Assembly: GCA_034401795.1 (NCBI GenBank)
Contig: CM067366.1
Span: 78,483,470 to 78,547,469, forward strand
Reading direction: 5' to 3'
From: Chaetoderma sp. LZ-2023a
Lineage: Eukaryota > Mollusca > Caudofoveata > Chaetodermatida > Chaetodermatidae
DNA length: 64,000 bases
How positions within the stretch are numbered: position 1 is the first letter of the stretch; each line of letters starts with the position of its first letter. Made by a program: the position numbers and the translations under genes. Below are positions 2,346 through 27,191 of the stretch, piece by piece. The notes below the pieces were generated by a model that made no database searches, was not told where the DNA came from, and was given only the letters and a program-made list of their open reading frames with translations.

Positions 2346-2581
2346 TAAATCGTAAGAGCAAACAATTTGTACAACAATGAATAGACCATCTTCAAATATG
2401 CGTTCGTGACGTACTTATCGATGTCATTCATGATGTCATTCATTATGATGTCATTGTACACATCACGCAGTTCATTATGATGTCAAACTCTGGAAAGGTG
2501 AATTGATCCCCCAAGCGGATACTGAAAAGAAAATTCTTTAATGCATTGTTTTAAATGCATTAAAAAAATTTCTTTTCATCA

Positions 2582-2649
2582 GCCCATCAGCCATCTTGGA
2601 TTTTGCCCGACCTTTTTAGGTTGGGCAAAATTCAAGATGGCTGATGGGC
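2582..2649. repeat. Long near-perfect hairpin
   Basis: A 32-bp stem (2582-2613 with 2618-2649) has two mismatches and a TTTT loop. Another hairpin lies directly upstream at 2523-2578, with a stem of about 24 bp that starts TGAAAAGAAA and ends TTTCTTTTCA. There are no coding signs, so this is most likely a fold-back repeat. Confidence 0.8.
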
Positions 2650-3964
2650 AAATTGGCTGATCGACTTTCTTTGAACCTGAATCCCTATGACCTAAGAATA
2701 CTTCCTGCCACATATACTTGAAATCAACCAAGCGGTTCTCGAGAAGACGTTTAAAATTTCCTATTGCTTTAATATAGGAGTGTTTTGCAGGAAAAAAGAT
2801 CCAAGATGGGTACCAAAACGTTTATCTGACAGTTTCAAAAATGGCAAATTGGAATCAGAATACATAAAACACCTATATAAAACCAATTTCGGCTTCAAAA
2901 TCCATCAAATAAAAAAACCCAATATGGCCGCCAAACACGCTAGATATTGATTGGCCCACAACGGCCAGGTTTTTTGATGCATAAACTTCCCTTGACCAAA
3001 GGTCAATGGCCCTTATTCTCTAATCATACCTCCCAAATTTGGCCTGATCCATTCAATGATTCTGGAGAAATTGTTTTCACGAAAACTAAGTCAACCAAGA
3101 TGGCCGCTGAAGCATTTATCTAAACAATTTCCATTGAACAAACTTGGTTCAGGGCAATTCCGTGAACAGGTTAACCACAATACTATTCAAAGCTCAGTGT
3201 AGCCTGATAAATGTTGTATCATTTAGTTGGAAATTTATTAGAGATTACAAATATTAACAATTTCTTTGGTTTTGAAAAAGTTTTTTTGAGTAAAAATTGG
3301 AAGGAATGTAGGTATATGGATTCTTTAAAAAAAATACTGATTTAAACACAAGATCTTTGCACCGTAACCTATTACCCAGAGAATGAGTGATAAGTTGAAA
3401 TGATTTAAATTTGTAACATAGAATACATCCATTTTAATATATCCAAGAAATTTTTTACCACCGATGGCTATGAGGAAAATGGGAAACTTTGAAATATGAC
3501 TTAGTTCGCTAATGTACGTCCGGTACCAACATTTTTTTTTTCATATTCAGTCTATAAAGCTTTGGGAATCAAGGTATATTATGCTTTTGATAAATTAGTT
3601 TTGGTAGCTCTAAGAATTGATAGCTAGATTAATTATATTCATCTGAAAATTTTCTATGAATCCTGGTGCCGGATGTACTCTATTTTGTACGTCCGGCACC
3701 ATAAATGACTTTAGGTTGATTTAGTTTTTTAAATTTTATCGGATTCTCTGCCTATCTATGAGCAAGTCACTGCACTATAGAAGTTTGTGGACGCTGATCT
3801 ACCTGACTTTGAAGGAATTTGCCACGGTTGGCTTGAACAAGCTACGTGTATGTTATGGTAAGAAACCTAATTACCATTATTATTAATCTAGTTAGATAAA
3901 ATGTATTTGAAATTTACCATAGGCATAAATTAAACTGTGTTGTTGGAAACCGTGGCCAATCAAC

Positions 3965-4425
3965 TTTGATTAATTAATCAAAAGGTGAATTGTTTCAGCA
4001 ATGTATCGTGCAAGGTATGTTAATTAATCCAAAGTTGAATTGTTTCAGCAATGTATCGTGCAAGGTATAGTAATTATTCAAAGTTGAATTGTTTCAGTAA
4101 TGTATCGTGCAAGGTATATTAATTAATCAAAAGTTGAATTGTTTCAGCAATGTATTGTGCAAGGTATATATATATTAATTAACATACCTTGCACGATACA
4201 TTACTGAAACAATTCAACTTTGATTAATTAATATACCTTGCACGATACATTGCTGAAACAATTCAACTTTGATTAATTAATATACCTTGCACGATACATT
4301 ACTAAAACAATTCAACTTTGATCAATTAACATACCTTGCACGACACATTACTGAAACAATTCAACTTTGATTAATTAATATACCTTGCACAATACATTAC
4401 TGAAACAATTCAACTTTTAAGTAAT
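3965..4425. repeat. Tandem array of about 50-bp units that switches orientation
   Basis: Units containing GAATTGTTTCAGCAATGTAT recur at about 3984, 4034, 4083 and 4133 on the plus strand. The same unit then appears reverse-complemented five times, near 4210, 4259, 4309, 4358 and 4408. The turning point is an AT-rich stretch (TATATATATTAATTAA) near 4175-4190. The whole array is a large imperfect palindrome made of short tandem repeats. Confidence 0.9.
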
Positions 4426-5936
4426 AAATATACTTTGCACAAAACAAAGCTGATTACCTCTGACATGGTCATTTCATAGCTTAGATCTAGCTCACTTATT
4501 GGATGGAGTACAATGTTGCGATCAACTTGATGATACCTTGGTTTCACCAACATCGTGATCAGATTATTCTGATATACATTTTCAAGTTTAACACCTTGGA
4601 CACAACATACTAACATCAGCTGTATATAATATCTAGATACATGTGCACCGTTTTCAATACCAAAGTTTAAGATGAATATCCATATTTTGAAACCTTACTG
4701 TATTGCCCACTTCGGGCATAGAACCCATTGTGTGAAATGTCATTAATTTCTGTTTTAATTCTGGATGTTTTCACTTTCGTTGTGAGTTTTAGCTCGTCTA
4801 ATGATACAGGTCCATTGGGACTCTTGTTTAATTTTATTGCAAACTGTTAGATTGACAATGATACATTTTTGCTACGATTTGTTCATGTGGTACCACAATG
4901 TCATACTGTAACCCTTTTACTTTTGAGATTCCATTATCTAAATTTCAAGTCATCTATACAGGTATGCTGTTGAATATTTTGAAATTAGTTGGACTGGAAT
5001 ATGTTGCTAGGCAGCAAACAGCTCCCGGTCAAATTAGTTTCAAATTATTCAACAGGATATTACTTTGTACATGTACATCATAAGGAATTTATAATTTATG
5101 AATAAAGTGCAAACTCCAGTATAATTCAAACCCATCATCATAGCTTTGATAACTTTACAGAAAATTGTATTGGAAGTCGACAAATGTGAAAAATCTGCAT
5201 TTTGCGAGTACGTCCGGCACCATGCCTTTATCATGCTCTGTACCCCAATTAAAAGGCCTGTCTTACCAATCAAGAGTGGGAATTATAATGTGCTTAGGGG
5301 CTGACGGCTTATCTGCAGGAAGAATTACTGGTGCATAAATAGTACATTAATAGGGCATCAAAACATGTGTCCCATTTGTACATCCGGCACCACGGAATTG
5401 CCCTTCAGCTGTTGCCCTAGATGCTGTTGTATGAGCTTTGAATCGATTCCCCAAGCGGCTTCGGAGATTTTTTCAAAGAGGTTTCTAAAATTGGTATGGG
5501 AGCTTTTGGTGAGAAAATTATCCAATATGGTCGGCAAACATGCTATATTTTGACTGTCCATCAGTGGCTATGTTTCTTTACCTGTCAACTTCTTTTGAAC
5601 AAACTTTAATGACGCGTAGTCTCTAATCATATCTCTCAAATTTTGGCCCAATCCGTTCTGGAGAAGTCATCTTCGTGAAATCTTGATCATCCGATGGCCA
5701 CCAAACCGTTTATGCGACAGTTTCAAAAATAGCGAATTTGAAATCAGATTACCCAAAAACCTATATAAAACCAATTTTGGCTTCAAAATCCTTAAAATTA
5801 AAAAATCCAATATGGAGATAGCCGCTTCAAGACACAATGCTGCAGTTCTGTTACTGAGTATTTAAGATGGGGATCTGGACTCATAGGATTAGCTTTTCAT
5901 CCAGAAACAACGCTTTATACGGTTTTTATCCAACCA

Positions 5937-6204: not shown

Positions 6205-7077
6205 TCATGAAATAAATAATATTGAACTTGAACGGCGAGTACCAGATAGAGCATGATATTGTGCATACGATAACATGTAAATGAGTCCGACTCGCTGAAG
6301 CAGTTTAACAGGACCCTTGACTTTGGAGACATGTAACACACCATCTACCCATAGGATGCCCTCCTGGAGGTTAACAGCTTCTACTGGTCCATCGAATGGA
6401 CGACGCGGCAGGAGCGTTCCACCTGTAACCCCGATCCAGTGACCCACCCTCGTCAGGGAGACGCCTTCACCTATGTAGGTGAGGAAGGATGATCCCCGAT
6501 TGTAGAGCTTTTGAACTGTCCCATCCTTTTTCACAGTAGTGGAGAGGGGAGTAACCTCTATGTCAATGACTGCGGGAGGCATATATAGGGGCAACCATGT
6601 TTGCCAGTCACCCCCAGGTCCAGCGGGGTACCACACTTCATTCTTCTCAAATATGAACTGCAGGTTTTTTGCCAGGGTCAATAGTAGACCATCATGGGCC
6701 ATCGGCGGGACACCGCTTGAATACGGTTTGACCAGATGAAAGCTGAGGTCGTTATTTAGGATGTTGATGTCTGCCACCTCTGTATCCGAAAGCTCAAACA
6801 ATGTCTCAAGGATGTACTTCCTCTTCGGGAAATCGTACCGAAACACAATCTTGTGGCCATCTATGTTGCAACCCAGGCGCTCCTTCGACACATCCTTGAG
6901 GTCTGTGAGCAGCTCCACCCCATCACCACCAATGGGGTGGAGGGAGAATGCCTTTGAGTTTGCTTCGTACTGTAGGGCGAATGACTTGCCATCGCTCTCT
7001 TCTACCTTGCCAGCATCAACTGCGTACACATCTGCCAGGTCAGCAAGACCAGTCGAGTGAGCAAATATGGGTTCCAT
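6205..7077 (-). CDS. Open 290-codon ORF of unknown function in the Polinton remnant
   Basis: The ORF is uninterrupted and starts with MEPIFAHSTG. I recognise no domain, signal peptide or membrane segment. It looks like a soluble beta-rich protein (many short V/I/L strands, GVTGG turns). It sits at one edge of the Polinton remnant and is read away from the plus-strand genes. All plus-strand neighbours carry stops or frameshifts, while this ORF does not. That could mean recent decay, chance survival or selection; the sequence alone cannot separate these. By position it may be a structural or accessory Polinton protein. That is inference from context. Confidence 0.55.
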   Translation of the reverse strand: MEPIFAHSTGLADLADVYAVDAGKVEESDGKSFALQYEANSKAFSLHPIGGDGVELLTDLKDVSKERLGCNIDGHKIVFRYDFPKRKYILETLFELSDTEVADINILNNDLSFHLVKPYSSGVPPMAHDGLLLTLAKNLQFIFEKNEVWYPAGPGGDWQTWLPLYMPPAVIDIEVTPLSTTVKKDGTVQKLYNRGSSFLTYIGEGVSLTRVGHWIGVTGGTLLPRRPFDGPVEAVNLQEGILWVDGVLHVSKVKGPVKLLQRVGLIYMLSYAQYHALSGTRRSSSILFIS

Positions 7078-7125
7078 AGCACGCTATAGGAGGGGTTTAA
7101 ACAGTTTATATATAAACATATAACC

Positions 7126-7504
7126 ATGCCGATTGTCCGACTGCTGCTCTCCGGTGGTGAGAACGTAATCTCACCCTCTCTAGAGGGGAGACGGGTGGTA
7201 CAGTACCGTGTAGAATGGGTCCTCTTCGAGGTGCCCCAGCGGGGCTAAAACATACATACACGCCGATGTGCTATATCAACCTCCGGGCCGTGCACACAGC
7301 AGCTCACTGGTAGAAGTCGGTCGGGACGTGATAGAGTATCTCCCAGGTGCCAACAGCAACCTATGGAAAGCTATCAGTCCTAGCCTGTTTACACCTGTAA
7401 ATCACCTGTTTGACAGCCTCTCCATTAACATATATGCCAGCACGGATGGGATATCGGATGCCCATTTAGAGTTTACACTCTTATTACTCATTGATCTGAC
7501 ATGA
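7126..7504 (+). pseudogene. Broken small Polinton gene of unknown function
   Basis: An ATG at 7126 opens a frame (MPIVRLLLSGGENV...) that meets TAA near 7247. A second frame from about 7268 carries on in the same style (LVEVGRDVIEYLPGANSN...) and ends with TGA at 7502-7504. A single frameshift explains the pair, giving an ancestral protein of roughly 125 residues. The stop overlaps the next start (ATGA), as in compact viral-type gene packing. I do not recognise the family. Context suggests a Polinton structural protein. Confidence 0.5.
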
Positions 7505-7779
7505 TATCACACCAGGAATATCTGACCTTTGCCGAGATGATGAAGCGCCCGCTACAGGGTTGGCCCTTCATGACTCCTGCACAGATAAAGGCCCAGAGGC
7601 TCGCACTGCAACAAGAAGGAGAGTGACTACAGCGGGAGAGCTGGTATCAACAGAATGCGAGCATTGCAAGGAGGCGAAGGAACAGTGAAGGTTCCCGATA
7701 CTGGCAGGCCCTCCTGGGGGAGAGTAAGTGGGACGCAGGAGTCTTGACAGACGACGATGAGCCAATATGTCTACGATGA
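7501..7779 (+). pseudogene. Broken small Polinton ORF
   Basis: An ATG at 7501 overlaps the stop of the preceding gene. The frame runs 41 codons, meets TGA at 7624-7626, then stays open in the same frame to TGA at 7777-7779. The peptide is charged, with Q/R-rich stretches, and has no recognisable domain. It is probably one small gene of about 90 codons with one internal stop. Confidence 0.45.
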
Positions 7780-8062
7780 TGTCACAGACGAGGATGGGCC
7801 AGATGCCTTACAGTAGGAAGAGGAGATGGCGCAGAAGTATAAGACGAAGAAAGCCATCCAGCGGCGGACCTACTATCTTGGTCATAAGGTGAAGTTCCAG
7901 ATGTCACGTCTCAGAAAGCTACTGGCACCCGACATAGTGCTGGATATCCTCTGTCTAAGAGACGTCTGTCTCGACACCAGCAAGCTGGCACGGTTTGCCA
8001 GGCTCTCCAAAATGAACCCTTCTATGACTCATGAGCAAATTCTGCAGGTGATGCAGGTTTAA
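7757..8062 (+). pseudogene. Small basic Polinton ORF with one in-frame TAG
   Basis: An ATG at 7757 starts a frame interrupted only by TAG at 7814-7816. It continues through an ATG at 7826 to the stop at 8060-8062. The downstream part (MAQKYKTKKAIQRRTYYLGH...) is basic at its N terminus and helical afterwards. The start overlaps the end of the previous ORF in another frame. Function is unknown. The 78-codon downstream part could still be translated from 7826. Confidence 0.45.
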
Positions 8063-8076
8063 TCTCCAGGTATACT

Positions 8077-8692
8077 ATGGCAAAATCAGATTGGCGAAAG
8101 CAACCAGAACTATACCGTTCTGACAGCTGACGAGGGCGGTACCATCCACGGCTGGTGACTCCAGCAGATAGATACCATCAGTCAGAATCTCATCCATGAG
8201 GCAGAAATGTACAGCAGAACGTGCAGGCGATATAAGACAACCTACAACGTCCTCACGCATACAACCACTGCTGCGGGTGTAATTGGAGCCAGTGCTGGGG
8301 TGGCAGCTGTGGCCACTCTCACTACAGGGGTTGGTGCCATCATCGCCATCCCGATGGGTGGCATGATACTAGCCACCACTGTCTTGGCCACGGGCTTGGG
8401 GGTGGGGCAGCGGCAGATCACAAGGAGGCTGGAGAAGTGTGTTAAGTATGTGGCACTGGCACAGAGTATGCTACGAACTATCGACGAGGCTGTCAGCAAA
8501 GCTTTCGAGGATGGCCAGGTCACTGATGAAGAGTACTGCCATATATTGTAGGTCCAAGCCCTGTACCGCACAGAGAAACCTAAAGTGTGAGAGCAATGCC
8601 TCAAAGGGCGGGTTGATATGGAGGAGTTAAAAAACGAGATGTTACAGCGAGGTGGTCTCGCTGGTCTCTGGAGTCGAGACGACTACAAATAG
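8077..8692 (+). pseudogene. Broken Polinton membrane-protein gene
   Basis: The longest open piece (8207-8551) encodes a strongly hydrophobic Gly/Ala/Thr/Val-rich stretch, roughly residues 20-65 of that piece, long enough for one or two membrane spans. A basic, helical tail follows (ITRRLEKCVKYVALAQSM...). In the same frame the upstream sequence is open from about 8084 apart from TGA at 8156-8158. Downstream the frame passes TAG at 8549 and TGA near 8588 and ends at 8692. Metazoan Polintons often encode small hydrophobic proteins, so a Polinton membrane or virion-associated protein is the best guess. Confidence 0.5.
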
Positions 8693-8731
8693 TGTGCTGC
8701 CTGTAAGGTAGCTTTAAGAACACCAGTATAG

Positions 8732-9189
8732 ATGGCCTTCCCACTGAACCTCACGACAGTCATCCGGAGCCAACCGCCCCTCCTGGGTACACCCTTGACT
8801 GGCCTGAGAGGTCTACTGGATGATATACCAGAGCTAACACCGTTCTCCATCACAGTGGATGGACGGTCTCAAACCAGCTTCTCCGTCAACCCACGACCAC
8901 TGACCAACCGCCCCATCACCATCAAGGATGCGAAGCAAGCTCATATTTAGATGGTTGCTCCAAGCCTCTCATACTGGAATCAGCAGCTGAACTTTACCGT
9001 GTGGTGTGCCATGGCAGGACGTGGAGTAAGTTCCACCCTGCTTCATTCCAACAGGCTGGAGAGAATCTCAAGATAGGCAATCTCAGCCTGAGCCATATCA
9101 CTGTCGATGGCCAAACAGGGGCTACCGCCAGCCTCCAGCTACCAGAGGTGAAGAAGTCAGGGTTCTTTGGTTTGCTGTTTAGGTCTTGA
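8732..9189 (+). pseudogene. Broken Polinton ORFs, possibly capsid-related
   Basis: Frame 8732-8950 (MAFPLNLTTVIRSQ...) ends at TAG 8948-8950 and stays open in frame for about 40 more codons. That stretch contains LSYWNQQLNFTVWC, a signature I associate loosely with Polinton capsid-region proteins. A second frame (9001-9189) then takes over and ends with a Gly/Phe-rich tail. The pattern suggests one or two ancestral genes broken by a stop and a frameshift. The capsid assignment is weak, and no jelly-roll fold can be verified here. Confidence 0.35.
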
Positions 9190-9254
9190 CGTACTCGGTA
9201 ACGGGTAAAGAGTAATACTGTCATGAAACAGAAAAAAACCCAAACTACAGTACA

Positions 9255-9392
9255 GTGAAAGTCACCAAGAAAGCTAGTCAGACCACGTTCCTCATAACAC
9301 CTGAGTTACGGTTTCTCGATGTGCTGAACTACCTCGGCCCAGGAGTCTCGTATGCGGTATGGGTCAAAGCTTATGGGTGTACACAGGTTTAA
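9255..9392 (+). pseudogene. Fragment of protein-primed family B DNA polymerase
   Basis: Forty-five open codons contain FLDVLNYLGPGVSYAVWVKA and end in YGC. This resembles the conserved block of protein-primed family B polymerases of Polintons and related viruses, which typically reads FLD..NYL.PG.S...F..AYG. The rest of the expected gene of about 1000 codons is absent. The element therefore cannot encode its own replication polymerase and has suffered a large internal deletion. Confidence 0.6.
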
Positions 9393-9407
9393 GACCACAG
9401 GATAGTC

Positions 9408-9686
9408 ATGGCTTCCCGTGCATGTCTCATACAGATACTGGATGTACTAGACACTGTGTGTGCTGACACAGGCCCTCTACGATATCTTCTCAGCTGCTGC
9501 TGGGATTTCATGCTTGACACCTCCATCGTATCCTTTGTATCCGCCGGAGGTGCAGGATTCCCCGCTCTGCAGGCAAAAGAGCTGGTGCAGGAAGTACTGC
9601 CGTTTAGTCTCCCAGATATAGACGAGGCTACCGCCGACCAAGTGCTAACCATCCTCCGCACGTATGTCTGTACCATTCGACAGTAG
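9408..9686 (+). CDS. Open 92-codon ORF in the Polinton remnant, unknown
   Basis: The plus-strand ORF starts MASRACLIQILDVLD and is cysteine- and leucine-rich with acidic helices. No recognised domain was found. It follows the polymerase fragment after about 15 bp and overlaps the next ORF by 23 bp in another frame. It may be a truncated gene or a non-functional leftover. Confidence 0.3.
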   Translation: MASRACLIQILDVLDTVCADTGPLRYLLSCCWDFMLDTSIVSFVSAGGAGFPALQAKELVQEVLPFSLPDIDEATADQVLTILRTYVCTIRQ

Positions 9687-9905
9687 GCCGGCCGATGCTG
9701 GCCAGGTGGTGCTGATCATTACCCCATCAGGACACGGAGAAAACATCTTGCTGCGTGCTCTCCTGGCCGAACATCTACACTCTCAATGCATCCTTCTGGT
9801 GTCTGACTCCGCCGCTGAGGCGGTTGACAGTAATGATCAATGGTACAATGGCCCAATCACCAAGATGCAGAACCTGACAGACTGTCGGCCGCAACTTTTT
9901 TTCAT
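9664..9905 (+). pseudogene. Possible NTPase-like fragment in the Polinton remnant
   Basis: About 80 codons include LIITPSGHGENILLRALL, which resembles a P-loop context (hydrophobic strand, G-rich loop, helix) but lacks the Walker A lysine and Ser/Thr. It could be a decayed packaging-ATPase fragment or a coincidence. Beyond about 9905 this frame is the antisense of the opposite-strand ORF 9902-10669 and should not be read as coding. Confidence 0.25.
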
Positions 9906-10669
9906 TCATCAGAACGCTGAGGAACTTCATCCGCGGTCTCCGCTACTTCGTCAGATGCTTGAGGACATTCGTCAGAAGCTACTTCATCAGAAGCTTCTTC
10001 GGCAGTTATGGCAGAAGCTACTTCGTCAGAAGCTACTTCGGCAGTTTTGGCAGAAGCCTGTGGCTTCTTCTTCTTCTCCTGAAGCTTACGAAGCTTCTCC
10101 TTAAGATGATACTTTCGCTGAAACTCTTCCCACTGAGGGTCCTTCTCTGGGATTTCCAGAAAGGCTTCCAGATCACTGTACAATTTCTCGCGCCCTTTTT
10201 CGTTGGAGCTGTGCTCAACAGCCTTCTTGCGGCCATCAGTGACCCCCTCCTGAGTACCTTCTGCATGACCGGTGGCGTGGCTCTGTGCTACAGCGGCACT
10301 GACCTCCTCCATGAGGGCGTTATTTGCTTCAGATTGGAGTCTATCCAGCATCTCTCGTTCTTCCTGGCTATGGAGGCTATGGAGGCTAAATATGGCAGCC
10401 CATTTCCCGACCGTTAGTAGATCTATGGGGTCGACCCTCGCCCTTTGGAGAGCTAGAATAACAGGACTGTTGGTTTGGGACACAGGTGGTAGGCTGAGTG
10501 TCTTGCCCTGGGTGCTGTCAAACTTCTGGTAGAGTATCTGAGTCAGGAGTTCTTTTGACTCATCGTGTATACTGGGTCGAATGACCATCAGGCAGTCCTT
10601 CCGAGGATCAGTGCGGTGCGATGTCGCGGGTTCAATGGCCCCATCTGGATGTTGCACATACTGCAGCAT
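9902..10669 (-). CDS. Open 255-codon coiled-coil ORF of the Polinton remnant
   Basis: The minus-strand ORF (MLQYVQHPDGAIEPATSH...) has an N-terminal mixed domain, a helical middle with Gln/Glu/Ala-rich segments, a Lys/Arg-rich coiled coil (about residues 165-200) and an acidic repetitive tail built from ASDEVAS-like units. Open sequence continues upstream in the same frame to about 10750 without an obvious ATG (for example LLENFTKHGRQLK), so the true start may have been lost. Polintons often encode one or more lysine-rich helical proteins of unknown function on the opposite strand, which fits. No enzymatic motif was seen. Confidence 0.5.
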   Translation of the reverse strand: MLQYVQHPDGAIEPATSHRTDPRKDCLMVIRPSIHDESKELLTQILYQKFDSTQGKTLSLPPVSQTNSPVILALQRARVDPIDLLTVGKWAAIFSLHSLHSQEEREMLDRLQSEANNALMEEVSAAVAQSHATGHAEGTQEGVTDGRKKAVEHSSNEKGREKLYSDLEAFLEIPEKDPQWEEFQRKYHLKEKLRKLQEKKKKPQASAKTAEVASDEVASAITAEEASDEVASDECPQASDEVAETADEVPQRSDE

Positions 10670-10759
10670 ATTTAAGGTCTGGGTATATAGAGGTTTTAAT
10701 TGCCTGCCATGTTTGGTAAAGTTCTCCAGCAGATTGTCTATAGGCAGCAGGACAAGTCG

Positions 10760-11240: not shown

Positions 11241-12214
11241 TCCTGAGGAACTCTACTATCAGCCTGGTGGATATTACTGTGAGCCCACTCAACTACTCGA
11301 GGCTGCACGTCACAAGGGCTACAACGTCACATTGGAGACAGTTAGCCAGTGGCTCAGCCACCAGGCGATGTAGCAGATATACAGACCTCGTCCATTGCAC
11401 ATCAGGCTTGCCCATTTCGAGGAAACTGTCCTGAACAGAGTTCACCAGGCAGATGTTCTATTCCTTCCCCATGACTCGGTTGGCCGTAAGACCTACAGGT
11501 ATGCCCTCACCATCGTCGATGTCGCCAGCATGTACAAGGCGGCAGTTCCACTCACAGACAAGTCAGGTGGCCAAGGCATTCCAGGGTGTCTACGAGGCTT
11601 CGGAAAATCCCCTCCAGTGGCCGGAATTGTTGCAGATGAATATGGGTAAGGAGTTCAGAGTGGAGACTGCAGCCCTCATGCGGAAACACGGTGTGGCCGT
11701 TAGGCGAGGCGAGGTAGGGCATCACCGTGCCCAGGCTATCGTTGAGTGGTAGAATTGGACACTGGCAGAGAGACTGTTCCCACACCAATACGCCCAGGAA
11801 ATGGCCGCGCTGAGTGAACATTCTAGAGTATGGGTGAGAGGGCTGCCTGCTGTGGTGGAGAGATCCAATGCCGGGGTTACTAGGCTAATCGGGAAAAAGC
11901 CGGTAGAGGCTATCAGACACTCTGCTGGTTACAGCTCTAGAGGAGCGAACAAGGGAGAGGAGTGCCTACCACCTGATGCTCTGGTTCGGTACCTGTATGA
12001 GCCTGGTAAGCTGGAAGGCGGTCGACGGAGTGCAACACATCCTAACTGGTCGATAGATTTTCACAGGCTTGACAGGTATGGGGAGGCGGAGGGGAGGCCT
12101 ACACTGTACTACCTGGCACGCCAGCACAGAGTGCCTAGGAGCCCATTTGTCATAGAAGAGCTTCAGCTAGTCCCTGCAGACACACAGCTACCACCCCCTA
12201 GGGTGCTAACATGA
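11241..12214 (+). pseudogene. Decayed Polinton (retroviral-like, rve) integrase
   Basis: The sequence reads as an N-terminal zinc-binding/HTH-like part (LYYQPGGYYCEPTQL..., about 11250-11370), a catalytic core (HQADVLFLPHD near 11440; AQAIVEW near 11735) and a C-terminal domain to 12214 (LYYLARQHRVPRSPFVIEE). The family inserts Polinton DNA and resembles retroviral integrases. Defects are TAG at 11371-11373, a frameshift near 11575 and TAG at 11750-11752. The position expected to hold the second catalytic Asp reads MNMGKEF, with Asn instead of Asp. The first Asp and the final Glu are recognisable. It is the strongest evidence that 6205-12214 is Polinton-derived. Confidence 0.85.
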
Positions 12215-12229
12215 TACTCGAGGGGCTCT

Positions 12230-13500
12230 GACGATGTACATTTTTTATTGCTGTTTCTATTGCTGTGTATTGCTATATTACTGTGAGTACTGAGTAATTT
12301 AAAGATATTTATATTGATATTCTTGTATTGCCTGCCCTTAAATATTAAATATTATCATGTTACTAATCATTAGTACCAACCACATTTCTCTTATTTCAGC
12401 TTTGTAAATTAAGCCCTCTTTGATTGGAAAAATATATATATATATAGACAGACAGACTAGCTGACAAACCTACCACTTGTAGAGTGTGCGCCTGGTAGCA
12501 TTTTTGTATTGATTGACTGTCTGGCTGCTTTAGAGTTTGATTGATTGATTGATTGATTGATTGTCTGATTGATTGATTGTCTGATCTAATTGGTTGCTTG
12601 ATCTGATTGGTTGCTTGATCTGATTGATTGCTTGAGTCTTACTTGATTTGACAGGTTGCTTGATTTGATTGTTTGTTTGAGTTGATTGCTTGCATGACTT
12701 GTTATTTGACCTGATTGGTTGCGTGATTTGATCTGATTGGTTGCGTGATTCATTGCTTGAATTGATTGGTTGCATGATGTGTTGCTTGAATTGATTGGTT
12801 GCGTGATTTGTTGCTTGAATTGATTGGTTGCGTGATTGGTTGCTTGAATTGATTGGGAGCGACAGGTTGATTGAGATTGATTGAAATTGATTGAGATTGA
12901 TTGAGATTGATTGAGATTGATTAAGATTGATTAAGGATTGATGGAGATTGATTAAGATTGATTAAGATTAATCGAGATTGATCGAGATTGATTAAGATTA
13001 ATTAAAATTGATTAAGATTGATTGACTGGGATTTGCTTGATTGATTGGGGGCTTGAGTTGTCACTTGATTTGATTGGTTGTTTCATTTGATTGGTTGTTT
13101 TATTTGATTGTCTGCGTGACTTGTTGTTTGATTGGTTATGTGATTTGTTGCTTGAATTGATTGGTTACGTGATTGATTGTTTGATCTGATTGGTTGCGCG
13201 ATTGATTTTTTAATTTGATTGATTGCGTGGTTTGTTGTTTAAACTGATTGGTAGCGTGATTGGTTGCTTGAATTGAATGGTTGTGTGATTGATTGGTTGT
13301 TTGAATTGATTTGTTGCGTGACTGGTTACTTGAATTGATTAAGTGCTTGATTGGTTGTTTACCTAGTTGCTAGCTTGATTGCTTGTCTTATTTGACTGAT
13401 GGTTTGACTGGTTGTTTGATTCGTTGTGTGATCTGATTGCGTGCTTAATTTGATTAGGTTTTGATTTGTGATTGATTGATTGGTTGCTTGTCTGTTCGAT
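12230..13500. repeat. AT-rich spacer and TTGATTGA-rich low-complexity tract
   Basis: After the integrase come about 250 AT-rich bases with a short (TA)n run. From about 12530 to 13500 the plus strand consists of irregular TTGA/TTGATTGG/TTGCTTGA units, including a GATTGAGATTGA stretch (12860-13020). It is a degenerate tetranucleotide-derived minisatellite. Short ORFs on either strand here reflect composition only. The PLE coding region begins at its right edge. Confidence 0.85.
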
Positions 13501-13523
13501 TGGTTGATTGCCAGGGCATTATC

Positions 13524-14525
13524 ATGGCTAGACAGAGCAGGGGAGGGAGAAAGGATGGCAATGAATCGGATTCACGCCACCAATCTTCTGCCCATGCTCG
13601 CCTAGTCAATGTATACTATATGGTAATACAATGCTTCCATCACCTTGGTGTGTTGGGCAAGCACATGGAGGCAGAGACACTGCCAAACTGCTTAGGCAAG
13701 AAGCTAAAAGAACTAAACAAGTTCTGCAAACCAGCCATGCCAAATGGAGATGTCCACTTTAACATTTGTAATGCTAATTTTGGTTGGGCTAAATCCATAG
13801 TACAGACTCTAATCAATCATTACAATTGCCAACTTGGCTGTATCAGATCCGAAATTATATCAGCCCAGGATCATTCCCACCTAGACGTTGGCCGTGCCAA
13901 GTCAACCGCCATTCGCTGGGCAAAAAACAATCATGGAAAAAGGCTTCATGATAAGGCTATTGCAGCCTTTTATGACTTTATCAGACCCATTGATCCTCAT
14001 CTTTTCCCTGCTGCCGTCAACAGAAATGCTACTCCAGTTCGTAAAACACCAGCCGAAACATCAGATTTTGTAACACCCTCTCAGGCTAAAAAGCGGGTAC
14101 GGTCACCTGCTGAGACCTCAACTCCAATCAAACGTACAGATACCAGGTGTTCTCCAGGCAGTGTCCGATCTACATCCTGTGATGGCAACATGTACTCACC
14201 AATTAACCCATTGCTAATCCCATTACCTGAGTCACCACCACCCGCCGAAACCTCGGCACCAATCGTACGCATAGATATCAGGCCTTCACCAGTCGGTGTC
14301 CAATCTACATCCGGTAATGACGAGATTCAGTCACAAATTGATCCAGCATCAATCCCTTTACCTGACTCGCCACCGCCTTCTGCACCATCATTCTCACCTG
14401 ATGATTTTCCCCCGCTTCCACAGAGGGTAGCTAAATCTGATCGGATATTAATGGAGAACAAGCTGGGCCTCACAACCCACACTACTCCAAAAGTACCGCA
14501 ACCACGGTTCACACCATCTCCTTAG
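13524..14525 (+). CDS. Gag-like ORF of the Penelope-like element
   Basis: The ATG at 13524 (MARQSRGGRKDG) is the most plausible start. An upstream in-frame start at 13476 lies in the TTGA repeat. Residues about 20-150 form a folded-looking region with conserved-looking W, C and H residues (LGKKLKELNKFCKPAMPNGD, NANFGWAKSIV). The rest is Ser/Pro-rich and disordered, with a twice-repeated segment (PAETS.PI.R.D.R.SP..V.STS). The stop at 14523 is probably a mutation, because the frame continues open directly into the SGNH domain. I infer a nucleic-acid-binding or structural role. No zinc knuckle is visible. Confidence 0.6.
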   Translation: MARQSRGGRKDGNESDSRHQSSAHARLVNVYYMVIQCFHHLGVLGKHMEAETLPNCLGKKLKELNKFCKPAMPNGDVHFNICNANFGWAKSIVQTLINHYNCQLGCIRSEIISAQDHSHLDVGRAKSTAIRWAKNNHGKRLHDKAIAAFYDFIRPIDPHLFPAAVNRNATPVRKTPAETSDFVTPSQAKKRVRSPAETSTPIKRTDTRCSPGSVRSTSCDGNMYSPINPLLIPLPESPPPAETSAPIVRIDIRPSPVGVQSTSGNDEIQSQIDPASIPLPDSPPPSAPSFSPDDFPPLPQRVAKSDRILMENKLGLTTHTTPKVPQPRFTPSP

Positions 14526-15118
14526 TCTAAGCCAAGAAAACCAACGAAACTAGAGCAAAATACGTTCTGGAAATTCCGGTATGAGTCATGTAACAAACCA
14601 AATTGGCAGCTCCCAACCATCAACAAAAAGATCCTGTTGCTTGGAGCATCTAACCTGAGCCGAATCAATGTGGCACCTCACCCAGAAATGCAGGTAGCTT
14701 GCTTCCCTGGGGCGTCTATCAATGATCTAAGAACGATCATTAATAGATACTCAGCGAAAGTCAAACCAGAAATGATCATCCTAAATATAGGCATAAACAA
14801 TCGAGACAACCCAATTCCAGCCCCAGAGAATCGGCTCAGGTTGTTGTTCAGCATGGTGAGGAAGAAGTTCCCTTCGGCGAGCATCCACTTCACTAAGTTA
14901 AACTTCTCAACCACTTCGACCCTGCATCAAAACGTGCACTGGAGGCAATCAATTGTGTTGCTGAATCTAGCAGGATCAAGTCCTCTGAGTCCGGCGTTAT
15001 TGTCATTCCACGCCTGCCACTCACAGAGTTCAGTGTGTGTCATGACAATATTCACTGGACTGAGAGAACTGATAATGCTATCTATGGTAATTGGCTCAAG
15101 TTCCTTAATTTAAATTGA
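14526..15118 (+). pseudogene. SGNH/GDSL-type hydrolase domain of the Penelope-like element
   Basis: In frame with the preceding gag-like ORF lies ILLLGASNLSRI, which corresponds to the GDS nucleophile block with Ser. NIGINNRDN follows as the G-x-N-D-like block. After a frameshift near 14910 comes DNIHWT, a D-x-x-H catalytic block. SGNH hydrolases act as esterases or lipases. Such domains are known as passengers in several retroelement groups (for example some CR1 ORF1 proteins and Ngaro-type elements). Here the domain sits directly before a Penelope-type RT. The final TGA is at 15116-15118. Confidence 0.6.
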
Positions 15119-16886
15119 ATGAAGGTCAGGGTAGCATCCACCCAGAACTGGAACTGGGACTGGGTAGAAATATTGTAAACTTAACCGGCTCCGCATTAGG
15201 TGAAGCAGAACAGTCACTGCTTGATTTTGGCTTGACCTTTGTCCCAACACCAAAACCTAAAACAGGTTTGGATGCAGATTTAGATAATGGCTTTACTGAA
15301 ACTGCTGAATTTGGTCACCGAGTGAAATTGGCAGATTTTTTTCGAAACTCCAATAGTAATATTCCACCATTCATTGAAAAAACCGGCTGGGCTCCAAACT
15401 TAAAATGTGTTGGCCCAGCAATCGGTGAAAGTATAAAACTTTACTCAGAATGTATTCAAAATACTACATTTCCAAACGATCAGCAAAATTTATCCTATGA
15501 GCAACGCCAGGCCCTATTAGATTTATCTAGAAAGAATGAAATTGTCATCAAACCTGCGGATAAAGGATTGGCTACTGTAATAATGGATAAAGACAACTAC
15601 ATCAAAGAAGCGCATAGACAGCTTAGTAATCCGAAGCATTACCGAAAACTAAATGGACCACTTTGGCAAAATAACTGTAGCAAATTCAACGAAATTCTCC
15701 AAAAAATGGTTGATAACAAGAAGATAACTGAAAAGCAATTTAAATACCTGTGTGCAAAAGATGATTCGAAACTACGTACATTTTATCTTCTTCCTAAAAT
15801 CCATAAGTCTGTTGACTTATGGACCGACCCAATGACATCACCAGGGCGACCCATCATTTCAGATTGTGGTTCAGAATCATATAGGATTAGTGAATGTATC
15901 GACTACCATCTTCAGCCAATTGCAAATAGACATTTTAGCTATCTGAAAAACACTGAAGATTTCCTAGCCCAGGTCTCTAAGATCTCGGTCCATCCAAATT
16001 CATTCTTAATTACAATGGACGTCGATGCTATGTACACAAACATTGACATCGAAAAGGGTCTAAATTCAATTCGTAGAGCATTTACCGACTATCCTGACAC
16101 CAACAGGCCCGACAGAGAAATAATAGCTCTATTAGAGCTTAGTCTGAAGGGCAATGACTTTGAATTTGCTGGTGAAATTTTCCACAAATTTGTGGCTGCG
16201 CAATGGGTAAGCGTTTCAGCCCAGGTTTCGCTAACCTTTACATGGCAGAGTGGGAAAAGGAAGCACTTGAAAACTGTCCAAATCAGCCGCTCATTTACCG
16301 CAGGTACCTCGATGACATTTTCATGATCTGGCAACATAGTAAGGAAGCATTTACCGAATTCCTGGCCATTCTGAATAATCATGATCCGAATATCAAACTA
16401 AAAGCTCAAATTGACGAGATGGACGTAGATTTCCTGGATATAACTTTATACAAAGGTATAAAGTATGAAACAACTGGTTACTTAGACCACAAAGTTTATT
16501 TTAAGCCAACCGACTCGCATCAACTACTGCACAAGAAATCATTCCATCCACCGCATACTTTCAAGGGACTTGTAAAATCACAAATAATCCATTTTCATAG
16601 AAATTCGAGTGATAAGAAAAACTTTGAATCATCATGTTCGACCTTATTCAAAGCCCTCAAACCGAGAGGGTACTCTTCTCGGTTCCTGCGTAAAATAAAG
16701 TCTGAAACTTTGCATAATTTGGAAATCATTCCGGATAATGCCAGAAATTCTTGGCCTACCAAAATTTGTCATAATCGTCCAATTATTGGTGAAGGAGAAT
16801 CTCGGAAATGTGAAAAGAAAAGGTGTAAATTGGATAAATTTCTTCCTTCCCAGAGTACATTCATGAGCTTTCAAAACAAAAGCTAA
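15119..16886 (+). pseudogene. Penelope-like reverse transcriptase
   Basis: RT motifs in order are KPADKGLATVIMD near 15550, LPKIHKSVD near 15790, GRPIISD near 15845, TMDVDAMYTNI near 16015, then after a frameshift near 16195 MGKRFSPGFANLYMAEWEK and YRRYLDDIFMIW with the catalytic YLDD near 16300. The LPKIHK, GRPIISD and MDVDAMYTNI pattern is typical of PLE RTs, which relate to telomerase RT. The open frame before 15119 also reads into this protein from 15115. Apart from the frameshift the catalytic motifs look intact. Confidence 0.85.
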
Positions 16887-17423
16887 TTTCAAATTCAGTC
16901 GAAATTAGATTGCGATTCTGAAAATGTCATTTACTTAATTTCATGCAAATTGTGTCAAAAGCAGTGTGTTGGCGGAACGAAAAATCCATTAAGATGCCGA
17001 GCAACTAGGCACCTTTTAGATATTAGACTAGAGGAAGACACACATGTGGCTGAACATTTTAATCTTCCTGACCATTTAGTCACTCGGGACTTTGAAATTA
17101 TCCCTATCGAACAGCTACCTCTTTCAGACACAACAGAGGAAACTGATAGACAAAGAAAGCTAAGAGAATCATTTTGGATTAAAGAACTCGAAACACAATG
17201 GCCAAGGGGCATAAATTCGGACCCAGGCCTCTCGGATCAACGTGAGATTATCCTATTTACTCTCACATACAATCGGAAAAATGTTGAAATAGCGAAAATC
17301 CTAAAGGATGAGTATCACAAATTACAGGACAATTTAAAACAACCATTCAACAAGCATCCGGTAATTGCATTTAAGAAAAATCCTAATCTACGCGACATCT
17401 TGGTAAAAGCGAAACTCAAATAA
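16887..17423 (+). CDS. GIY-YIG endonuclease domain of the Penelope-like element
   Basis: The sequence continues in the RT frame after one stop (TAA 16884-16886). A VIYLISC segment is followed by a CxxC pair (C-K-L-C), then QCVGGTKNPLRCRATRHLLD and HVAEHFNLPDH. This is the usual layout of the PLE GIY-YIG nuclease: a VIYLI strand in place of GIY, VGGT in place of YIG, a catalytic Arg, and HFN. An open tail of about 80 residues follows and ends at TAA 17421-17423. The enzyme nicks target DNA for retrotransposition. Confidence 0.8.
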   Translation, partial: FQIQSKLDCDSENVIYLISCKLCQKQCVGGTKNPLRCRATRHLLDIRLEEDTHVAEHFNLPDHLVTRDFEIIPIEQLPLSDTTEETDRQRKLRESFWIKELETQWPRGINSDPGLSDQREIILFTLTYNRKNVEIAKILKDEYHKLQDNLKQPFNKHPVIAFKKNPNLRDILVKAKLK

Positions 17424-17604
17424 GTGTTCAAAACATCAATCAATGATTTATCATTGTATACTAATCAGGCCATATGGCATCTCTTAAACAAAATTGACAA
17501 TCTCAGGTGATAAAATAAGCAAAAATATTTTCAATTTTTTCAATTTTGAAAATTCTGAGCCGGTGTGTTTACAATATTACATACATACGTACGTACATAC
17601 ATAT

Positions 17605-18620
17605 CCGCTTCTGCTGGTTAGGCTAGTAAGCCTGTAACAGATTTTCACTTTCTTCTTGAGCCTGGGTTTCATTAACCTGTTTAACTGATTGAGTGCGGAT
17701 GGGTGATATCGGGAACTGAATTGATCCGTGTATGGCATTATTGTCGGTGACACTCTCCTTGGCTCAAATCATAAAAAGTACATCAATTCACTGCCTCACT
17801 GGAGTTTACATCACTCTTGAAAACACACGATGCACTACTGAGATTGCATCTGTAGACCAGGTAGTGGATATCTAAAAGCAGTAACTTTATTTTAGGGTTT
17901 ATTATTATTTTTGAGAATGTTTTATTTCAGTGAATGTCTGCTAGTTACGAAATTAACTAAATTTGTTGATAAAATGCCTAGTCTTATACTAAATTGTCGA
18001 AAATGTGCTTACACCTCGAAAACCCATTATCCGATGATCTACATATTTGGAGGTTTGCCTGAAGGGAACTGCGAGAGGCGGAATTTACATAACAAGAAGA
18101 ATATTTACTTGCCAACTTGTTTTGTTTAAACCTGTCGTAGTCTTCGAATAACTATAGTAACAGAAATTGCGACAGTACTACATTATTTAATGACGTATTG
18201 AGTGACACTAAATCATCAACATATCTTGCGTAAGTATTTTTTTTACTTATTATATTTGAGTAACCAGTATTCGTTAGTAAAATCAATTAGGCTACATAGT
18301 AATAGTTTATTAGTTACATAGTTACATGGTCCTCTTCTGCTTGTTAGGCTATATAGCCTGTAGCATGTCTTCACTGTCTTCATTTTCCTCTTACATAGTC
18401 CTCTTCCGCTGTGTAGGTTAAACAGCCTGTAGGGTATGTAGCAGTTCTTCACTGTCTTCTTCATCACAAGAAGTTTGAACCTGTTGAACTGATTGGGTGC
18501 TGACGGGTTTGATCGGGAACTGAATTTCATATGTGCTGCTGCCATAGTACTTGTCAAGTCTTCCCTTGACACTCAGAAACTGACTGAAACAAAAGCCAGT
18601 TAAAACACATGTAAATAGTT
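17605..18620 (-). repeat. Repeated C-terminal fragments of an unidentified ORF
   Basis: On the minus strand 18418-18600 encodes a peptide with FPIKPVSTQSVQQVQ followed by an acidic stretch (CDEEDSEELL). A diverged second copy at about 17605-17770 encodes FPISPIRTQSVKQVN plus QEESENLL. A third partial copy, covering only the 3' end, is at about 18330-18400. The longer frame runs up to 18765. I do not recognise the protein. The copies point to local duplication of one 3' exon or of an element's 3' end. The gaps between copies (17780-18320) hold no supported gene. Confidence 0.5.
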
Positions 18621-18659
18621 CTTGTTCACCATCGTGACCATGCACTTCTATTTGTATAT

Positions 18660-19330
18660 ACACTGACAGTGATAATTTATTAAATAAAAGACAGGAGCTT
18701 GAACTTCTAGCAAATGAAATCCAGCCAGCCGTGATCTGCATAACAGAGGCATTTCCAAAGTACACACAGACAGCTATTAAACACAGTGAACTGCAGTTGA
18801 AAAATTATGACTTATTTACAAACACCAGGCCTTTGCGAGGAGTAATTGTTTACACACACAAGTTCCTTAGTGTTCAACCATGTGACTCGTTTAATAATTA
18901 TGACTTTAATGAATCTGTTTGGTGCCACTGGACAACGGGTACTAATGAGAAGGTCCTACTAGGATGCATGTATCGGAGCCCGAGCTCCAACAGTAGCAAC
19001 GAAAACCTAATCAGCCTCTTGAATAATACGGACAAGGAAAATGCAATGCATTGTTTGATTGTCAGAGACCTTAACTACCCTAACATAAACTGGGATACAG
19101 GCACCTCAACTGATCAGACCGGCCAATGCTTTGTAGACGTTCGCCATGATAATCTCCTATAGCAATTTGTTCACAAACGCACTAGGCATCGGGAACTTCA
19201 AAAAGAAAACATCCTAGACTTAGTTATTACAAATAATGCCAATGTAATTATCGACATTTCACATGAAGCCCCTCTTGGCGAGAGTGACCATGGCACGCTA
19301 GAGTTACATCTACACCCTAACCTAATCAGC
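18660..19330 (+). pseudogene. CR1/L2-like LINE endonuclease fragment
   Basis: The frame reads like an apurinic-type endonuclease: PAVICITEAFP near 18725 (catalytic E), LLGCMYRSPSS near 18960, RDLNYPNINWD near 19070 and ESDHGTLEL near 19280 (SDH motif). One stop lies at 19160-19162, after which the same frame continues to the SDH motif. The RT part is missing, so this is a truncated LINE copy. Confidence 0.75.
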
Positions 19331-19335
19331 AGTAG

Positions 19336-19515
19336 TAGGGTCGGGGTCAAAATGATACCACCTCCCTCAACTGGCCACCATTCGGCGATCCGTGGCCCCC
19401 ACCGCCCTCTCAATCCCTGGGGCATAGGTTGTTGAGAAGGGGGCCACCACGGATCGCTGAACGGCTGCCAGGGCGGTAGTATCATTCAGACACTACTACT
19501 ACCAGGGTCTGAACG
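19336..19515. repeat. Imperfect fold-back at the end of the LINE fragment
   Basis: GTAGTAGGGTC... and a later ...ACTACTACTACC are the outer ends of arms of about 80 bp. Both arms contain GATAC(C/T)ACC, GCGATCCGTGG and GCCCCC-type segments in inverted order, around a short GGGGCATAGG centre near 19428. No coding function was found. Confidence 0.6.
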
Positions 19516-19641
19516 CCCATTTAGAGACAAGCCTCCACAGTGATATACACCACTGATCGCCATCAACTACAGGGCCGGCCTCTCTCTCTTCTGTGTGGGC
19601 TCAGACAAACACGTAGTCTCTGCCAGAGTCGCATCGGCATG

Positions 19642-25137: not shown

Positions 25138-27191
25138 ATGTTCAAGGACCATGTCTGTTTTAGGTGTTCCCTGTGTAATATAGATCATAGGTGTAATGTT
25201 TGTGCAGTGTGGTCCGTCGAAATGATGGTTAAGTTCCTTGCCCAGAAGGACTTGGCTGGGTCTGACGCGGGGTCAGGCGGTCCGAGAGGAAATCGTGGTG
25301 CGCCCGGTTCGGCCGGTGGGGGTGCTCCACGTCCCCAGCTGGATGTGGCGGAGATGGCACCGCCGGCGTGGTTTGGTCCGGCTATGCAGGGTTTTCTGCA
25401 TAGCGTTCTGCCCACGCTGGTGTCGTCCCTGCTACCAAAGGTTGGGGGGCAGTTTCTCCCCATGCCTGGTACGGATCCTGTCCTCGGACAGGATTCTGGA
25501 CTGGTTACCGAGGGGGGGCCGTCTCGTACGGTCCCCTGGCAGGCACGTCTGGCTTCGGTCAGACGGGTTCTGTCTCTCTGCGGCCACCTCCGGGTGGTCC
25601 AGTAGCGGTGGCCGGTCCGTCAGGTATGGGAGCCGTCCGCCAGGACGGCTCCACGGTTGACTCGTCTAGTGACGGCTCTTCGGAGTCTGAAGACGAGGAG
25701 GAGAGGTTGCTGCGGCCCATGAAGCCGCAGGTGGAGAATATGGAGGTTGATTCCGTCCTGGACGGAACCGGCCTCCATTTGTCTGGTTTGGCGCAAGCCA
25801 GGTCAGCGGCTCCGCCTGCGGCTCCGCCTGCGGCTGAGGCCAATCCGTTACCTTGCACCGGTTCCGCGCGGCTTGGTTTGTCACCAGCCGTCATGGGAAC
25901 GGGTGTGCCGGGCCAGGCGTGGTACTCGCCTATCTCGCCTGGTCTGGCAGCCGGACGTGGGGTGCCATTGGCGCCCGTGTCCGGCTATGGTTCCGCGACT
26001 GTTACGGGTCCGTACGGTTTTCCATGCGGACCTACCCCATGGACCGGAGTGTTTCATGGGGTGGCGGCGGAACCGTGTGGTAGCGGAGTGCCTGGCGTGT
26101 CAGCCGTGGCTCCTTGCCGGGAGGCCGTGGCTGGCAGACCCGTGAGCACGTCAACGGGTGACGTGTTTGCGGGGGTGTCTTCATCGGAGGTAGATTGGTC
26201 AGATGCTCTGGCGTGGCTAGCCAGGGTTGACCCGTCTGTGGTTTCGGCCACGGCCGATGAAGATGCGCCCCGTCCGTCGGTTGCGTCGATTAGGACGGGG
26301 ATTTTGCCCGCGGCCCGGATCCAGTCAGTGGGACTGGATCCACGGTTCATAGATTTGTTGGATGCTATTTATAGCAAACAACTAATGACCAAGGGTTAGC
26401 TCCCTGCGGCCTCCAGGGAGGTGCGGGCAAGATGTCGTATTCCGCGGGGTGAATACGACAGGTATGGTGTAGTCCCGTCGGTCACGGAGGATGACCGATG
26501 GGTACTGGGAGTCCAGAGTGCCGGGTCGGGTGGCCCCGGTCCGGCACTAGTGGATAAGTCCCAGGTACACCAGGAAGAAGTCCTGTCCCTATGCGATGAG
26601 GGTGTGAGGGCAGCGATGAGCGCTGTCAATCACTCTTATCGTCTCCTTCAGTCGGTGTGGGCTGAAGCGGGGGCAGGCCACCCTGTGCCACCTGTGGCGC
26701 TCTCATGTGTTAATGACGGCTTGGTGCTGTCAATGGACGCATTGGCAAGGGTGCAAGCGCGAGTGACGAAGTCCACTACGGCAGTCAGGGAGCGTCTTCT
26801 TGGGACGCCCCTGACAGGGCCTAGCATCTTCGGTGGCCAAGCGCGAGCCATCTTAGAGGACACCGCCAGTATCGCGCAGAATCGGTTAGCGGTAAATCTA
26901 CAGCTAGAGCTAGTGCGGCAAGCGCACGCACTAGGGGCTGTGGGCAAACCGCTAACCGGGCAGCCTTCAAAGAAGCAGAAGAAGCATAAGAGCAAGGCGA
27001 AAGCCAGGCCTGTTGCGACTTCTGTTTCAGCTGGGTTCTCGGAGCCGCCGCCGGCGAAGAAACCCAGGAAGGTTGTAGAGGCGCCTACCCTCCCCAATGT
27101 TGCTCCTGACCGCCCTAGAGGCGGGAAGGGCAAGGGGAAGGGTAAGGGTAAGGCCTCAAAGGGCGGACAGAAGGGGCCGAATCGTACCTGA
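25090..27191 (+). pseudogene. DIRS gag-like gene
   Basis: The N-terminal part is Cys/His-rich (CDDC, then CFRCSLCNIDHRCNVC near 25159-25206), probably a zinc-binding module. Long Gly/Pro/Ala/Ser-rich linkers follow, then a helical domain (26421-26950) and a basic tail of KGKGKGKG and KKQKKHKSKAK type that could bind RNA. The frame shifts near 25605 and a TAG occurs at 26397-26399. Beyond it the same frame is open to TGA at 27189-27191. DIRS gag proteins are poorly conserved, so the call rests on position before RT and on composition. Confidence 0.7.

What the first reader, a model, noticed from the sequence alone, without database searches (positions are those of the whole stretch)
13524..17423. 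Penelope-like element with gag-like and SGNH-hydrolase modules upstream of RT and GIY-YIG
The frame runs from a gag-like region through a single stop into a GDSL-type hydrolase and then to a Penelope RT with GIY-YIG nuclease. SGNH domains are known in CR1 and some tyrosine-recombinase retroelements. Their use by a Penelope-like element would be an unusual domain combination and suggests convergent capture of an esterase.
Basis: partly seen in the sequence, partly recalled or inferred. Interest (0 to 1): 0.75.

Follow-up and report, generated by a model that had tools for sequence, protein, structure and literature searches.

The report
Two-gene Penelope retroelement carrying an esterase
This is a broken copy of a Penelope-like jumping gene that carries, ahead of its copying enzyme, a second protein made of a helical domain and an esterase; related copies elsewhere keep the same layout, and some look as if they join the two proteins by a ribosomal frameshift, as retroviruses do.

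Summary
The domains at 13524-17423 are real and belong to one element: a dead copy of a two-ORF, endonuclease-bearing Penelope-like element (PLE). ORF1 = 138-residue helical domain + Pro-rich linker + SGNH hydrolase; ORF2 = PLE RT + GIY-YIG. SGNH catalytic residues are nearly invariant in 90 rows. 'Gag-like' is not supported; 'convergent capture' is unresolved. SGNH esterases in PLEs are already in print (Schneider 2013). Not found in print (ten searches, open-licence papers): this two-ORF layout and a likely -1 frameshift. ORF2 is in the -1 frame in all three lineages read; two have TTTAAAT/TTTAAAC in the overlap and no ATG before the RT. Against it: downstream RNA is not above shuffles, L002 lacks the heptamer, and P0010 has SGNH and RT in one frame. 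The window's own genome could not be searched.

The parts
13524..15118 (+). ORF1 (N-terminal helical domain + Pro-rich linker + SGNH hydrolase), broken by TAG 14523-14525 and a frame change near 14900; ends TGA 15116-15118
   Evidence: six ORF1 relatives, of which P0121, P0122, P0123 and P0125 end in LNLN as the window does (P0124 LHLN, P0126 different)
13584..13997 (+).
   Evidence: HMM of proteins 54.9 bits vs best of 500 shuffles 6.4; AlphaFold model pLDDT 92.4, pTM 0.84; no Foldseek match under E 1
13998..14624 (+). Pro-rich linker; the matching part of relative P0122 has pLDDT under 50; contains an imperfect duplication 14104-14242 / 14239-14377 (73%)
14625..15115 (+). SGNH (GDSL-type) hydrolase domain; Ser, Gly, Asn, Asp and His motifs all readable, in two frames
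   Evidence: HMM of proteins 75.0 bits on 14526-15110 and 30.6 bits on 14897-15115; catalytic columns; model of relative P0122 matches SGNH structures such as PAF acetylhydrolases, E 7e-6 and up
15109..15115 (+). TTTAAAT heptamer (X XXY YYZ in the ORF1 frame), directly before the ORF1 stop; proposed -1 frameshift site
15109..17423 (+). ORF2 in the -1 frame relative to ORF1: N-terminal motif L..GL.F.P, RT, GIY-YIG; broken by a frame change near 16190 and TAA 16884-16886; no ATG before the RT (first Met is residue 159)
   Evidence: 358 RT relatives at E <= 1e-5, 120 listed
16176..16883 (+). second RT piece with YLDD motif
   Evidence: RT/EN model 321 bits
16887..17423 (+). GIY-YIG endonuclease region
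   Evidence: RT/EN model 104 bits; Pfam GIY-YIG E 0.07 in the window, 2.4e-6 and 3.4e-5 in L001 and L002

Best explanation
A decayed copy of a two-ORF, endonuclease-bearing Penelope-like retroelement. Shown: ORF1 encodes a conserved helical domain, a Pro-rich linker and an SGNH hydrolase whose catalytic residues are intact in relatives; ORF2 encodes PLE RT and GIY-YIG; the unit recurs in distant lineages. Inferred: ORF1p binds or assembles with the element RNA through the helical domain, while the SGNH domain acts on (or docks to) lipids or acyl esters, steering the ribonucleoprotein to a membrane; ORF2 is made mainly as an ORF1-ORF2 fusion by -1 ribosomal frameshifting at T TTA AA(T/C), giving much ORF1p and little RT/EN fusion, like Gag and Gag-Pol; RT/EN then integrates by nicking and target-primed reverse transcription (recalled knowledge of PLEs). 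The confidence given is for the element, its two-ORF layout and an active ORF1p; the frameshift step alone I put at 0.55.
For: L001 has the order in two tandem copies (ORF1 1290-3140, ORF2 3056-5353; 6731-8581, 8497-10719; 5248 of 5279 positions identical) and L002 has SGNH-RT-GIY-YIG followed by the 5' part of another ORF1. N-terminal domain found in 79 of 82 SGNH proteins and, with models free of them, in 6 of 6. One of 120 listed RT proteins (P0010) has SGNH and RT in one protein. Closest RT (P0001, 75% identical over 70% of the query) and an ORF1 relative (P0123) each come from a single JGI contig of 4068 bp, probably the same one, not verified. Catalytic Ser 89/89, Gly 89/90, Asn 89/90, Asp 83/85, His 85/85. 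ORF2 is in the -1 frame in 3 of 3 lineages read as DNA. Canonical heptamer in the overlap of 2 of 3, against 49 of 20000 (window) and 1587 of 20000 (L001) shuffles. First Met of ORF2 is residue 159 (window) and 392 (L001), after the conserved motif at 38 and 63. Possible footprints: 'LN' at the ORF1 C-terminus in 61 of 71 readable of 88; 'FK' upstream of the RT motif in 11 of 28 RT-list proteins with at least 30 residues there.
Against: Downstream RNA folds no better than shuffles (z -1.16 and -0.76 for L001, -0.42 and 0.38 for the window, -0.23 for L002). L002 has no heptamer in its overlap and an ATG overlapping the ORF1 stop. P0010 has SGNH and RT in one frame, so needs no shift. Other in-frame heptamers occur outside the overlaps, for instance AAAAAAC at window 13922 and TTTAAAT at L002 766. 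17 of 28 RT-list N-termini lack FK, and LN/FK could be plain protein conservation. No hammerhead ribozyme and no terminal repeats around the window copy. The membrane role is taken from ZfL2-1 ORF1p, not tested here.
Confidence: 0.75

Rival explanations
1. Two unrelated elements abut or nest: the gag-SGNH part is the ORF1 of a CR1/RTE-type element (whose endonuclease fragment lies at 18638-19435) and the PLE is inserted between.
For: A non-LTR endonuclease fragment lies downstream on the same strand (PF14529 E 1.7e-5); SGNH ORF1 proteins were first identified in the CR1 clade.
Against: L001 and L002 show the same ORF1-ORF2 junction in other genomes; ORF1 and ORF2 overlap by 10 nt in the window and share the -1 relation in 3 of 3 lineages; the ORF1 end matches that of four of six relatives.
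Confidence: 0.04
2. The two-ORF architecture is right, but ORF2 is translated by termination-reinitiation, splicing or a non-AUG start rather than by -1 frameshifting.
For: L002 has an ATG overlapping the ORF1 stop and no heptamer; RNA downstream of the heptamers is not unusually structured.
Against: The window and L001 have no ATG before the RT core and carry TTTAAAT/TTTAAAC in the overlap.
Confidence: 0.3
3. The SGNH domain is a non-catalytic or scaffold module kept for RNP assembly, not an active esterase.
For: Non-catalytic SGNH proteins exist (Oskar, passage; GDSL derivatives of Athena-L, passage); no substrate is known.
Against: Catalytic residues are nearly invariant in 90 rows, which a pure scaffold would not need.
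Confidence: 0.15

Closest known systems
Penelope-like elements with endonuclease (PLEs)
   Same: RT of PLE type and C-terminal GIY-YIG; head-to-tail tandem arrangement in L001 and apparently L002
   Different: Literature seen here describes these as having a single RT+EN ORF (PMC6431247 section 8; passages of PMC3846280); here a separate ORF1 with helical domain and SGNH precedes it
SGNH-esterase ORF1p of CR1/L2/RTEX elements (ZfL2-1, PDB 4c1a/4c1b)
   Same: N-terminal helical region, variable linker, C-terminal SGNH; 4c1b is the best PDB sequence match (E 6e-6)
   Different: The residues aligned with H191 and S228, called transposon-specific by Schneider 2013, are absent (0 of 90; 0 of 88); the RT and endonuclease downstream are of another class; 4c1b is not among the 50 fold matches listed
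Penelope-like elements with esterase in Schneider et al. 2013
   Same: SGNH esterase in a PLE
   Different: I could not see their supplement, so I cannot say whether theirs is this family; the missing H191/S228 suggests it may not be
Athena/Terminon PLEs of bdelloid rotifers
   Same: PLE RT with GDSL-type ORFs in some families
   Different: Endonuclease-deficient giant elements with many ORFs; their GDSL ORFs are reported not to cluster with the non-LTR esterases (passages of PMC5408684)

Membership tests
Penelope-like element | RT of PLE type | tested here: met
   358 RT relatives at E <= 1e-5, 120 listed, many with precomputed RVT_1 and some with GIY-YIG; window groups with P0001 and P0002 at 100% SH-aLRT. 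That these are PLEs rests on the RT + GIY-YIG make-up; no named PLE clade references were in the tree, so the clade is not assigned.
Penelope-like element | C-terminal GIY-YIG endonuclease | tested here: met
   Above Pfam cut-off in L001 and L002 ORF2 (28.2 and 24.5 vs 22.6 bits); weak and decayed in the window
Penelope-like element | pseudo-LTRs / tandem copies | tested here: inconclusive
   Tandem copies in L001 (period 5441); L002 ends overlap by 39 bp inside ORF1; none found around the window copy
Penelope-like element | Hammerhead ribozyme motif (reported in PLEs) | tested here: inconclusive
   No match in window, L001, L002 at gathering thresholds, nor at E <= 5 in L001, L002 and window 11800-19600
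SGNH hydrolase superfamily | SGNH fold and Ser/Gly/Asn/His motifs | tested here: met
   Model of P0122: 67 PDB chains at E <= 0.001, the 50 listed mostly SGNH esterases such as PAF-AH; residues
CR1-type transposon esterase of Schneider 2013 | H191 and S228 conserved | tested here: not met
   0 of 90 His, 0 of 88 Ser at the aligned positions; the H191 position follows and the construct limits, the S228 position from extending by 3 residues
Retroviral/LTR Gag | Capsid fold | tested here: inconclusive
   No Gag among the 50 listed Foldseek rows of PDB and of BFVD, all E > 1, nor among the 50 entries shown by VIA-align
Retroviral/LTR Gag | CCHC zinc knuckle | tested here: not met
   No such Pfam hit in window ORF1 pieces or P0121-P0126 at E <= 1
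-1 programmed ribosomal frameshifting | Canonical X XXY YYZ heptamer in the ORF overlap | tested here: met
   Met for the window and L001; L002 has none
-1 programmed ribosomal frameshifting | Stimulatory RNA structure a few nt downstream | tested here: inconclusive
   z-scores -1.16 to 0.38 for window and L001; pseudoknots not modelled
-1 programmed ribosomal frameshifting | Frameshift product or efficiency | not testable with these tools
   needs reporter or ribosome profiling

The most novel reading that the evidence does not exclude
A widespread branch of endonuclease-bearing Penelope-like elements, in fish and in the window's (unidentified) lineage, has a Gag/Gag-Pol-like expression plan: an ORF1p made of an undescribed five-helix domain and an active esterase, and an ORF1-ORF2 fusion produced by -1 ribosomal frameshifting at TTTAAA(T/C).
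Probability: 0.55. Interest if true: 0.65.

Novelty: new variant of a known kind. Interest (0 to 1): 0.5.

Why it matters
PLEs share ancestry with telomerase and are usually described as compact elements, those with endonuclease having a single ORF. A conserved ORF1 with an esterase, coupled to RT by what looks like -1 frameshifting, would mean that this class has its own counterpart of Gag and Gag-Pol, and it supplies open fish-type copies on which RNP assembly, membrane involvement and frameshifting can be tested directly. It also gives a sequence handle for proteins now deposited as 'hypothetical protein' in fish genomes.

Tried and rejected
Own-genome search: the genome search 'own' did not complete in 13 attempts, so copy number and intact copies in the window's genome are unknown, and so is the host.

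Viral-contig scans with the RT and ORF1 found no relative. Genome contigs gave 2 loci out of 133 pattern matches, both in bacterial records; I take them as fish DNA because their ORF1 relatives that bear names are mostly fish, which is inference. The ORF1 search scored only the 7994 candidates sharing most words; its 6 hits are a lower bound.

Papers: PMC3905857 section 12 and passages; PMC6431247 section 8 and passages; PMC5408684, PMC5718144, PMC3846280, PMC7599744 and PMC5009743 passages only; the rest search listings. Three look-ups were not held. Supplements were not seen. 'Not found in print' rests on the ten searches in open-licence papers only; one search listed 8 of 41 papers.
Full report
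What is there. The 13524-17423 stretch holds, in order, an N-terminal domain, a Pro-rich linker, an SGNH hydrolase, a Penelope-type reverse transcriptase and a GIY-YIG end. It is a dead copy: TAG at 14523-14525, a frame change near 14900 in SGNH, a frame change near 16190 in RT, and TAA at 16884-16886. Between SGNH and RT I see no decay but a natural boundary: ORF1 ends with ...FLNLN and TGA at 15116-15118, as P0121, P0122, P0123 and P0125 end in LNLN (P0124 in LHLN, P0126 otherwise), and ORF2 is open in the -1 frame from 15109.

More than chance. Models built from the proteins (78 of the 82, those of 480 residues or more; 77 of these gave the 79 rows of the N-terminal model, 78 the SGNH model) find the window at 54.9 bits (N-terminal domain) and 75.0 bits (SGNH); the best of 500 shuffles reach 6.4 and 10.3 bits. 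The rows were gathered with seed models that held the window or its relatives, so the alignment, not the content, of these models leans on them. Pfam on its own is weak on this copy.

One element, not neighbours. A genome-contig scan with a PLE RT alignment gave two loci. L001 has two head-to-tail units, each with ORF1 (616 codons open) and ORF2 (765; the second is cut by the contig end), 5248 of 5279 aligned positions identical. L002 has the 3' part of an ORF1 with SGNH, a full ORF2, and then the 5' part of another ORF1 with the helical domain; its contig ends overlap by 39 bp, as a head-to-tail array would give, so in L002 the link between helical domain and SGNH is inferred. Database searches gave 6 ORF1 relatives for the window and 82 proteins for the L001 SGNH region (one is L001's own deposited protein), among them proteins named from Sarotherodon, Oreochromis, Xyrichtys, Channa, Hemibagrus, Scophthalmus and other fish; most carry no name. 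The N-terminal domain occurs in 79 of the 82 (the three without it are P0149, P0191 and P0207) and in 6 of 6 by models that hold none of them. SGNH was found in 1 of 120 listed RT proteins, P0010, where SGNH and RT share a frame; few are expected, because ORF1 is a separate frame and the search admitted only proteins up to 1.75 times the query. In an RT tree of 110 rows the window sits with P0001 and P0002, outside the 48-row group that holds L001, L002 and P0010, so the architecture spans distant PLE branches.

How ORF2 is expressed. ORF2 is in the -1 frame in 3 of 3 lineages read. In the window the overlap allows one heptamer position only, and it reads T TTA AAT; L001 reads T TTA AAC in both copies; L002 has none in its overlap. 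Heptamers also occur by chance elsewhere in the ORFs, such as AAAAAAC at window 13922 and TTTAAAT at L002 766. Mononucleotide shuffles give a canonical heptamer in the overlap in 49 of 20000 (window) and 1587 of 20000 (L001). ORF2 has no Met before residue 159 (window) and 392 (L001), while the conserved N-terminal motif starts at 38 and 63, so an ordinary AUG start upstream of the RT is not available there; L002 has an ATG overlapping the stop, and P0010 has both domains in one frame. At protein level, 'LN' (which TTA AAY would encode) stands at the ORF1 end in 61 of 71 readable of 88 proteins, and 'FK' (which the shifted frame would encode) stands before the RT motif in 11 of 28 RT-list proteins with at least 30 residues there; 17 of 28 lack it. 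RNA downstream is not more structured than shuffles. I judge -1 frameshifting more likely than not, but not shown.

Proposed function. By analogy with ZfL2-1 ORF1p (binds liposomes and hydrolyses esters; abstract passage of PMC3905857), ORF1p would package or tether the RNA and use the esterase at membranes; the ORF1-ORF2 fusion would put RT/EN into the same particle. None of this was tested here.

Against what is known. SGNH in Penelope-like elements is in print, and GDSL ORFs are known in Athena/Terminons. A 2019 review describes PLEs as having until recently been regarded as compact, with a single RT+EN ORF or two ORFs without EN (section 8). In ten searches of the held open-licence library I found no description of the two-ORF layout with this helical domain or of frameshifting in PLEs; subscription papers, Repbase reports and supplements were not available, so this is a weak negative. 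Verdict: a real element, a new variant of a known kind, of moderate interest, with the frameshift as the testable new claim.

Noticed in passing
window 34111-34422 (-): A short second PLE-like RT fragment (20.9 bits, E 5.4e-6 to the RT/EN model; 35 residues around a 'LLVTMDVTSLYANI' motif), on the other strand.
   Followed up: partly
window 27079-30221 (+): Reverse transcriptase (RVT_1 E 8e-23), RNase H and a weak phage-integrase SAM-like domain (E 3.6e-4): looks like a DIRS/Ngaro-type tyrosine-recombinase retroelement (the type name is recalled).
   Followed up: partly
window 46162-48834 (+): 890-residue uninterrupted ORF with two AAA domains (AAA E 7e-87), CDC48-like by domain make-up (recalled); single-exon gene or retrocopy.
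   Followed up: no
window 42223-43879 and 56420-58093: Two 98% identical copies of a stretch that in the second copy encodes a Tc1/mariner-type transposase (DDE_3, HTH_Tnp_Tc3_2).
   Followed up: no
window 12537-13360, about 51.6-55.2 kb, 61.1-64.0 kb: Degenerate minisatellites; the first (TTGA-rich units) ends about 160 bp before the ORF1 ATG, with similar-looking sequence up to it, so the 5' end of the element is not visible; the other arrays are G- and T-skewed.
   Followed up: partly
window 18638-19435 (+): Fragment of a non-LTR retrotransposon endonuclease (PF14529 E 1.7e-5 on 18638-19159, just under its curated cut-off).
   Followed up: no
P0087 (database protein, residues 1-50): A PLE RT protein whose N-terminus reads, by eye, like the end of a GIY-YIG domain and which ends without an evident GIY-YIG: possibly a permuted (Naiad-type, recalled) element.
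   Followed up: no
L001 and L002: Bacterial records (Epulopiscium single-cell WGA, Enterovibrio MAG) carry animal-type retroelements; a protein of L001 is deposited as Candidatus Epulonipiscioides gigas (P0127), probably host DNA contamination.
   Followed up: partly
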